Shown here in pieces: positions 58,766 to 61,653 of a DNA stretch of 64,000 nt. The notes beneath the pieces were generated by a model. It ran no database searches and was not told where the DNA came from. It was given only the letters and a program-made list of their open reading frames with translations. How positions within the stretch are numbered: the stretch's first letter is position 1; the number at the start of each line of letters is the position of its first letter. Origin of the DNA: Yersinia proxima (GTDB lineage: Bacteria > Pseudomonadota > Gammaproteobacteria > Enterobacterales > Enterobacteriaceae); the NCBI RefSeq assembly GCF_902170785.1, contig NZ_CABHYG010000004.1, forward strand, positions 372,001 to 436,000, read 5' to 3'. The position numbers and the translations under genes were made by a program.

Positions 58766-58777
58766 GATTTTTTGACA

Positions 58778-58915
58778 TATACCCAAAGTCATTGGAGTTG
58801 CAGGTAGGCGGCAAGCGAATAAATCCCGATGAGCTGACTCAGGTCAGTGATTCGGGTGCATGAGTGTAGCCAACAACCCTGCGGCTTCAAGGACGAAGGG
58901 CATAACCGAAGAGGT
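58778..58915. repeat. ERIC-like repeat between ackA and pta
   Basis: ATATACCCAAAGTCATTGGAGTTGCAGG ... AATAAATCCCGATGAGCTGACTCAGG ... TGATTCGGGTGCATGAGTGTAGCCAAC ... CGGCTTCAAGGACGAAGGGCAT. It ends about 13 bp before the pta ribosome binding site, inside the ackA-pta mRNA. Same family as 5488-5611 and 46016-46157. Confidence 0.85.
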
Positions 58916-61133: not shown

Positions 61134-61169
61134 TGCGGGCTTTTTATTGTATTAGGGCAAGAATAGGCA

Positions 61170-61196
61170 CAAAAAAACCGCCATAAAGACGGTTTT
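61170..61196 (-). terminator. Terminator of the candidate small RNA
   Basis: Minus strand AACCGTC-TTTAT-GGCGGTTTTTTTG: 7-bp stem with one G-U pair and a strong T-run. On the plus strand it also reads as a hairpin with five T, so it may terminate both ways. Confidence 0.8.
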
Positions 61197-61267
61197 TCTG
61201 CGCTGGTCCGGTAAGCGGCCTTTCCAGCAGATTTGTATTGCCGTTGTAACGCAAGCACACTCTCGTG
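61170..61267 (-). ncRNA. Candidate antisense small RNA (type I antitoxin-like)
   Basis: The minus strand has a -35 TTGACA (61297-61302), a -10 region (CAATAT after 17 bp, or TATACT after 20 bp) and, about 90 bases on, an intrinsic terminator (AACCGTC-TTTAT-GGCGGTT followed by seven T). Predicted RNA is about 98 nt. Its 5' part, CACGAGAGTGTGC, sits in a small AGCAC-loop-GTGCT hairpin and is complementary to 61406-61423 in the mRNA of the neighbouring small ORFs (18 bases, one as a G-U pair; about 16 if the 5' end is at 61267). Divergent placement and partial complementarity resemble IstR-tisB and OrzO-zorO. Expression has not been shown. Confidence 0.55.
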
Positions 61268-61423
61268 CTGAGTATATTGTCTCGCTTGTGGTTGATTGTC
61301 AAATGCTGAACAACTCAATATTGGTGTACAATCGCGCTGGGCCTTTTCGCCGCCCTAAGCAAGCGGGCATCGGTTTAAGGAAAGGAGTTCCAATGGCCGT
61401 AAACACAGGCACACTCTCGTGCT
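61252..61423. repeat. Direct repeat pair: antisense source and its target
   Basis: CA(A/G)GCACACTCTCGTGCT occurs at 61252-61269 and at 61406-61423, 154 bp apart, identical except for one A/G. Each is able to form a GCAC-ACTCTC-GTGC hairpin. The first lies in the 5' end of the candidate small RNA (transcribed leftward), the second inside the leader ORF (codons 5-11). Confidence 0.85.
61327..61332 (+). promoter_or_regulatory. Candidate -10 box of the small-ORF mRNA
   Basis: TACAAT, five of six matches to TATAAT, 61 bp upstream of the leader ATG. No good -35 is visible at the usual spacing, so the promoter may need an activator or be weak. Confidence 0.4.
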
Positions 61424-61470
61424 TGTATTCACGGCAGTGTCGCCGATGGTGCTGGCGTGAAGCGGTCTAA
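61393..61470 (+). CDS. 25-codon leader ORF upstream of small hydrophobic peptide
   Basis: ATG 61393 is preceded by AAGGAAAGGAG-TTCCA, one of the strongest ribosome binding sites in the window. It encodes MAVNTGTLSCLYSRQCRRWCWREAV, rich in Cys, Arg and Trp and of no known family. The stop at 61468-61470 is 2 bp before the ATG of the next ORF, which has a poor site of its own. The antisense target lies in its codons 5-11. The layout, a well-translated leader coupled to a hydrophobic peptide, is like mok-hok. Peptide production is unproven. Confidence 0.5.
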   Translation: MAVNTGTLSCLYSRQCRRWCWREAV

Positions 61471-61472
61471 GC

Positions 61473-61604
61473 ATGGACCGCACAATGAAACGATACTTTT
61501 GTATTGTGCTCGTTGTATTTGGTGCGTTGTTAACATCCTGGAATGGGGGTTGGAGTATTTTCAACAACTCAATCACGGTAATCATCAACACATCAGGCAA
61601 GTAA
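61473..61604 (+). CDS. 43-residue hydrophobic peptide, candidate type I toxin
   Basis: ATG 61473 (or in-frame ATG 61485, 39 residues) opens MDRTMKRYFCIVLVVFGALL followed by TSWNGGWSIFNNSITVIINTSGK. A short basic start is followed by one hydrophobic helix (YFCIVLVVFGALL) and a second weakly hydrophobic strand-like part. Size, single helix and basic N-terminus are like membrane-acting type I toxins, but the sequence is not Hok, Ldr, TisB, Ibs or ShoB. It lies just after the leader ORF and is followed by a stem-loop terminator. Confidence 0.5.
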   Translation: MDRTMKRYFCIVLVVFGALLTSWNGGWSIFNNSITVIINTSGK

Positions 61605-61611
61605 AACAGAT

Positions 61612-61635
61612 AGCCGCCTTTCGGGGCGGCTTTCC
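61612..61635. terminator. Stem-loop after the small ORFs
   Basis: AGCCGCC (61612-61618) pairs with GGCGGCT (61625-61631), loop TTTCGG, followed by TTCCTT. It lies between the small ORF stop and the convergent LacI-type gene, so it may serve both. Confidence 0.75.
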
Positions 61636-61653
61636 TTCAGAGTTTGTCTATCT

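What the first reader, a model, noticed from the sequence alone, without database searches (positions are those of the whole stretch)
61170..61635. Candidate new type I toxin-antitoxin locus downstream of pta
A small minus-strand RNA with a TTGACA promoter element and an intrinsic terminator diverges from a small mRNA. The mRNA has a strong ribosome binding site at a 25-codon leader ORF, then, 2 bp after its stop, a 43-residue peptide with a basic start and one hydrophobic helix. An 18-base segment (61252-61269) near the RNA 5' end is repeated in the leader ORF (61406-61423), so RNA and mRNA can pair over up to 18 bases, one as G-U. This is the layout of tisB/istR and hok/mok/sok, where the antisense RNA blocks translation of a leader coupled to the toxin. 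The peptide does not resemble any toxin family I know. Existence of both transcripts, toxicity and pairing are inference.
Basis: partly seen in the sequence, partly recalled or inferred. Interest (0 to 1): 0.87.

Follow-up and report, generated by a model that had tools for sequence, protein, structure and literature searches.

The report
Yersinia copy of timPR toxin-antitoxin locus

Summary
The sequence features are real, and the type I toxin-antitoxin reading is right in kind but not new. The plus-strand transcript matches Rfam ryfA over its full length (RF00126, 268.5 bits). RyfA is the timP mRNA, and the divergent RNA is TimR (mBio 2020, PNAS 2024; a Yersinia enterocolitica sequence is in the PNAS alignment). 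Two details of the finding are doubtful or wrong. First, translation most likely starts at the second ATG, 61485, giving a 39-residue TimP; the ATG at 61473 lies in SL4 and is absent in 12 of 26 loci, though present in all 10 two-armed Yersinia loci. Second, coupling to a leader ORF is not supported: its ATG is present in 4 of 10 Yersinia loci, and only the window combines it with a 25-codon frame. What is conserved is the published SL1-SL3 pseudoknot (100% paired in 17 distinct sequences) and the TimR/target match, which changes together: 26 loci, 0 of 10,000 permutations as good. Of 17 inner differences, 16 keep a G-U pair. By-products: plasmid copies, tandem copies with different seeds, and two copies deleted between the repeats.

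The parts
61163..61270 (-). timR: antitoxin sRNA, about 104-108 nt; ends inferred (5' end near 61270, 3' end at the terminator)
   Evidence: terminator 61203-61167; fold z -4.29; same layout in the 10 two-armed Yersinia loci
61252..61269 (-). TimR 5' arm that pairs with the timP leader
   Evidence: 17/18 identity to 61406-61423; co-variation
61297..61302 (-). TTGACA, probable -35 of timR
   Evidence: TTGACA present in 10 of 10 two-armed Yersinia loci and in 19 of 26 loci
61327..61332 (+). TACAAT, probable -10 of timP
   Evidence: TACAAT or TACACT in 10 of 10 two-armed Yersinia loci
61337..61637 (+). timP mRNA (RyfA), whole transcript by family model
   Evidence: Rfam RF00126, 268.5 bits, model 1-296/296
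61342..61385 (+). SL1; lower stem 61342-61348 with 61379-61385 (the 'strong RBS' is its 3' arm)
   Evidence: 100% paired in 17 distinct sequences, 3 pairs with changes on both sides; not in the single-sequence minimum-energy fold
61368..61374 (+). pseudoknot strand in SL1 (CAUCGGU), pairs with 61442-61448
   Evidence: 7 pairs, 100% paired, 3 with changes on both sides; published as essential in Salmonella
61442..61448 (+). pseudoknot strand in SL3 (GCCGAUG)
61405..61426 (+). SL2, holds the TimR-binding site 61406-61423
61428..61461 (+). SL3
   Evidence: 85.9% of cells paired
61462..61481 (+). SL4, stem-loop just before the start codon
   Evidence: 78.4% of cells paired
61393..61470 (+). 25-codon leader ORF; not conserved, probably not functional
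   Evidence: ATG plus 25 codons in 1 of 10 two-armed Yersinia loci
   Evidence: NCBIfam NF040796 E 3.9e-9, below cut-off; this frame intact in 10 of 10 two-armed Yersinia loci; start as annotated in E. coli
61612..61637 (+). timP terminator stem and U-rich tail
   Evidence: sequence; end of Rfam match

Best explanation
This is timPR of a Yersinia species. The plus-strand RNA is timP mRNA (RyfA) encoding a 39-residue, probably toxic inner-membrane protein. Its start region is closed in stem-loop 4. Translation most likely needs the SL1-SL3 pseudoknot. The minus-strand TimR pairs through its 5' arm with the SL2 loop, upsets the pseudoknot and stops translation. Shown here: homology, conserved structure, co-changing arm and target. 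Inferred from Salmonella work: both transcripts, toxicity, pseudoknot-dependent translation. The leader ORF most likely plays no part.
For: Rfam ryfA full length, E 3e-74. blastn finds the locus in 5376 of 5426 E. coli genomes, and the 20 rows listed are annotated timP. NCBIfam toxic_TimP E 3.9e-9. A 42-pair structure on 17 distinct leaders has 92.7% of cells paired and 16 pairs with changes on both sides, 0 of 500 shuffles; the pseudoknot is 100% paired with 3 such pairs. Own arm-target matches across 26 loci sum to 396, best of 10,000 permutations 312. 16 of 17 inner arm/target differences keep a G-U pair in the TimR x timP orientation. Published mechanism: PMC7667032, PMC11228461.
Against: No expression data were examined. 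TimP scores 36.6 bits against a curated cut-off of 45 and has no Pfam match. The ATG at 61473 is present in all 10 two-armed Yersinia loci and in L016, L016b and L017, so a 43-residue start is not excluded. SL4 pairs in only 78.4% of cells, partly because rows L019-L022 are placed one base off. A whole-RNA duplex energy for the window (-79.1) did not stand out from shuffled leaders (mean -60.4, lowest -81.7 of 300). The single-sequence fold of the window leader does not give the SL1 lower stem. Arm and target fit poorly without a gap in L022 (10 of 17), and L004's arm fits a relative's target better than its own.
Confidence: 0.95

Rival explanations
1. A hok/mok/sok-like system: TimR blocks translation of the 25-codon leader ORF, whose translation is needed for the toxin.
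For: In the window the ORF has a Shine-Dalgarno-like stretch and stops 2 nt before the ATG at 61473. In the E. coli locus L016 a 31-codon ORF at the same place overlaps the timP ATG as ATGA. Four more Yersinia loci keep the 25-codon frame open, though with ACG.
Against: The leader codon is ATG in 7 of 26 loci, 4 of 10 in Yersinia; ACG, ACA, ACT, CTT, TTG or GTG elsewhere, of which TTG (2) and GTG (1) could be weak starts. Only the window has ATG plus a 25-codon frame among the 10. The uORF start mutation in Salmonella had no effect. The SD-like stretch is an SL1 arm.
Confidence: 0.04
2. RyfA is a trans-acting regulatory RNA in Yersinia and the peptide is incidental.
For: RyfA is treated as a regulatory sRNA in Shigella and pathogenic E. 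coli papers (passages of PMC5333039; titles and abstract starts).
Against: The TimP frame is intact in 10 of 10 two-armed Yersinia loci, where the proteins differ only at residues 19, 20 and 24. Translation and toxicity are shown in Salmonella. A double role is not excluded.
Confidence: 0.05
3. A new type I toxin family.
For: No Pfam match; NCBIfam score below cut-off.
Against: Full-length Rfam match and shared arm, target, pseudoknot and start position with E. coli timP.
Confidence: 0.01

Closest known systems
timP/TimR (ryfA) of Salmonella and E. coli, Rfam RF00126, NCBIfam NF040796
   Same: Divergent gene order, start position near +147, four stem-loops, SL1-SL3 pseudoknot, TimR 5' arm against SL2, TimP N-terminus
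   Different: Sits between pta and a LacI-type regulator gene, not between sseA and sseB as in E. coli; TimP diverged (49% identity to the E. coli L016 protein)
RyfA1/RyfB1 and RyfA2/RyfB2 of Shigella dysenteriae (PMC5333039, passages)
   Same: About 100-nt divergent RNA; RyfB1 has 16 of 18 complementary bases over the variable region of RyfA1
   Different: Two tandem copies there, one here
tisB/istR-1
   Same: Divergent antisense RNA acting far upstream of the toxin start
   Different: As described in PMC7667032: tisB needs mRNA processing and a standby site; timP does not undergo processing
hok/mok/sok
   Same: Small membrane toxin; a leader ORF in the window
   Different: Leader ORF not conserved here; sok overlaps its target gene (recalled)

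Membership tests
timPR (RyfA/TimP with TimR) | RNA family RF00126 over its gathering score | tested here: met
   268.5 against 80 bits
timPR (RyfA/TimP with TimR) | TimP-like ORF starting near +147 | tested here: met
   start at +149, intact in 10 of 10 two-armed Yersinia loci
timPR (RyfA/TimP with TimR) | TimP protein over the curated NCBIfam cut-off (an annotation threshold) | tested here: not met
   E 3.9e-9 over positions 4-40 of 40, but 36.6 bits against 45; a diverged homologue, so membership rests on the RNA family and layout
[quoted passage not shown]
timPR (RyfA/TimP with TimR) | SL1-SL3 pseudoknot | tested here: met
   100% paired, 3 of 7 pairs with changes on both sides
timPR (RyfA/TimP with TimR) | start region closed in SL4 | tested here: met
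   GCGGUC/GACCGC in the window fold; 78.4% of cells over the family
timPR (RyfA/TimP with TimR) | toxicity and TimR repression in vivo | not testable with these tools
   experiment needed
hok/mok/sok-type leader coupling | conserved leader ORF overlapping or abutting the toxin ORF | tested here: not met
   ATG in 4 of 10 two-armed Yersinia loci, ATG plus 25-codon frame in 1 of 10
tisB/istR | TisB-like toxin sequence | not tested
   no Pfam family matched TimP; TisB not compared directly

The most novel reading that the evidence does not exclude
timPR is a small mobile module whose TimR arm and timP target are direct repeats that renew themselves together. After duplication the toxin stays identical while the seed changes in both places, making copies that do not cross-repress. 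Recombination between the same two repeats removes both promoters and SL1 in one step, a built-in safe way to lose the toxin. On plasmids the module may serve plasmid maintenance.
Probability: 0.3. Interest if true: 0.5.

Novelty: already known. Interest (0 to 1): 0.2.

Why it matters
It corrects the claim of a new system and names the locus; its TimP falls below the NCBIfam cut-off, so annotation may miss it. The comparison adds sequences that fit the published pseudoknot model and speaks against leader-ORF coupling in Yersinia. Seed differences between tandem copies and the plasmid-borne copies give a testable case of how antisense antitoxins become specific.

Tried and rejected
Leader-coupling (hok/mok) model: set aside on leader conservation and the published mutation. 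Start at 61473: set aside, since that ATG is missing in 12 of 26 loci and lies inside SL4; but it is present in all 10 two-armed Yersinia loci, so it is not excluded. Pure gene conversion as the cause of the arm/target match: weakened, since 16 of 17 inner differences are of the G-U kind that RNA pairing would favour (the rows are related, so the binomial value 0.0003 is too small). Four rows identical in target and arm to a listed one (L005, L007, L008, L010) and the gapped L022 were left out of that count, so 21 of 26 loci. Phage records: only 31-base matches to the TimR terminator stretch in 2 records. Fused (L011, L012), degraded (L013) and partial (L014, L015) copies, and weak matches L024-L031 and the cut L072, were left out of the structure and arm counts. 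The whole-RNA duplex energy was uninformative.

Full report
Observation. All sequence elements named in the finding exist at the stated places. The repeat matches at 17 of 18 bases, and the one difference gives a G-U pair (read).

Identity. The plus-strand RNA 61337-61637 matches Rfam RF00126 ryfA over the full model (268.5 bits, gathering 80, E 3e-74), and the genome has one such locus. A blastn search with the region finds a counterpart in 5376 of 5426 E. [quoted passage not shown] The 39-residue peptide from 61485 matches NCBIfam toxic_TimP (E 3.9e-9, 36.6 bits, under the curated 45) and no Pfam family up to E 1. Of PMC7667032 I read part 1 of 7 (abstract, introduction, start of results), the discussion and passages; of PMC11228461 parts 1-3 of 5, passages and the alignment section. 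They report for Salmonella that RyfA encodes TimP, that overexpression damages the membrane, that TimR represses by pairing with the 5'UTR, that the SD is trapped in SL4 and that an SL1-SL3 pseudoknot is needed for translation. Y. enterocolitica 8081 is in the 2024 alignment.

(1) Start codon: the E. coli protein is annotated from the second ATG. The ATG 12 nt upstream is absent in 12 of 26 loci but present in all 10 two-armed Yersinia loci. The window TimP is therefore most likely 39, not 43, residues; the longer form is not excluded. (2) Leader ORF: at the leader start position 7 of 26 loci have ATG, and 4 of 10 two-armed Yersinia loci. Four Yersinia loci have the same 25-codon frame with ACG in place of ATG, three with ATG stop after 14 codons, and two have TTG with a shifted frame that runs on. 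Only the window has both ATG and 25 codons. The authors also noted the lack of conservation and found no effect of the start-codon change. (3) The Shine-Dalgarno-like GGAAAGG is the 3' arm of SL1, paired with CCUUUUC or its counterpart in 17 of 17 distinct sequences.

Structure. On 18 leaders (17 distinct) I set out 42 pairs from the published scheme and the window sequence. 92.7% of cells pair, against 85.5% in shuffles and 41-49% when slid by 1 to 3 columns. 16 pairs have changes on both sides, with 0 of 500 shuffles reaching this. The seven pseudoknot pairs are formed in every distinct sequence, three of them with changes on both sides. The structure was chosen with knowledge of these sequences, so the slid control flatters it. 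The single-sequence fold of the window leader gives SL2, SL3 and SL4 but not the SL1 lower stem.

TimR and its target. In 26 loci (22 distinct targets) the own arm-target matches are 13-17 of 17 in 25 loci and 10 in the gapped L022. They sum to 396; the best of 10,000 re-assignments is 312. Close relatives can fit as well as own: L004's arm fits a relative's target better than its own. Of 33 differences in 21 non-redundant, ungapped pairs, 23 are G-U compatible; of the 17 in the inner 13 positions, 16 are. This direction is what pairing of a minus-strand RNA with the plus-strand mRNA predicts.

Genomic setting. All 25 Yersinia genomes searched have pta next to the LacI-type gene. 11 of 25 carry timPR between them, 10 of these with both arms. 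A ryfA match exists in 13 of 25. In a sample of 394 genomes of the order, 16 match, own genome included, 8 over the cut-off, with stricter filters that lose weak matches. No call named the window's own species.

By-products. Tandem copies in Erwinia phyllosphaerae (L076) and an E. coli strain (L016) encode identical TimP proteins but have different seeds. Own arm-target matches are 15-16 of 17, crossed ones 10-12. Shigella's RyfA1/RyfA2 'variable region' (PMC5333039, passages) is the same phenomenon, and RyfB1 acting on RyfA1 only is already reported there. 36 of 72,556 plasmid records match; of the 20 listed, 4 are over 1 Mb and 10 are Escherichia plasmids of 46-50 kb. Two were looked at for arm and target and have both: a conjugative Serratia plasmid (L063) and a 48-kb E. 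coli plasmid (L062). A search for papers with RyfA, plasmid and phage-plasmid found none, and among 20 of 74 papers listed for timPR terms only three concern this system; this is a weak basis for calling the plasmid copies unpublished.

Verdict. Ordinary in kind and already known: the Yersinia timPR locus.

Noticed in passing
L011 (1501-1785) and L012 (1501-1784): timPR copies deleted between the TimR arm and the timP target (direct repeats): both promoters and SL1 gone, TimP frame still open.
   Followed up: partly
L076 573-1440; L016 1688-2650: Tandem timPR copies with identical TimP protein but different, internally matched arm/target seeds; crossed pairing is predicted weaker.
   Followed up: yes
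L063 3169-3471; L062 3015-3313: timPR with arm and target on a conjugative Serratia plasmid and on a 48-kb E. coli plasmid with Rha and ParA genes; no gene listed there in the (incomplete) PLSDB table.
   Followed up: partly
L016 1742-1837: In this E. coli locus a 31-codon leader ORF ends ATGA on the timP start codon; the second tandem copy keeps the frame with a GTG start.
   Followed up: no
window 58777-58900: Weak match to Rfam V_AS5 (50.1 bits, below gathering 96) around the gap before pta.
   Followed up: no
L035 (G007), about 1995-2750: About 700 bp with a transposase-like ORF of the IS200/IS605 kind (recalled likeness, not tested) between pta and timR in one Yersinia genome.
   Followed up: no
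L056 (G022) after pta and L012 upstream of timP: A similar repeat of roughly 150 bp occurs in the pta-lacI gap and beside the displaced timP copy in Y. similis; it may mark how the copy moved or was lost.
   Followed up: no
L013 and L064: A degraded timP copy in one Yersinia genome looks the same as a copy on Y. ruckeri plasmid pYR4, near an Abi family gene.
   Followed up: no
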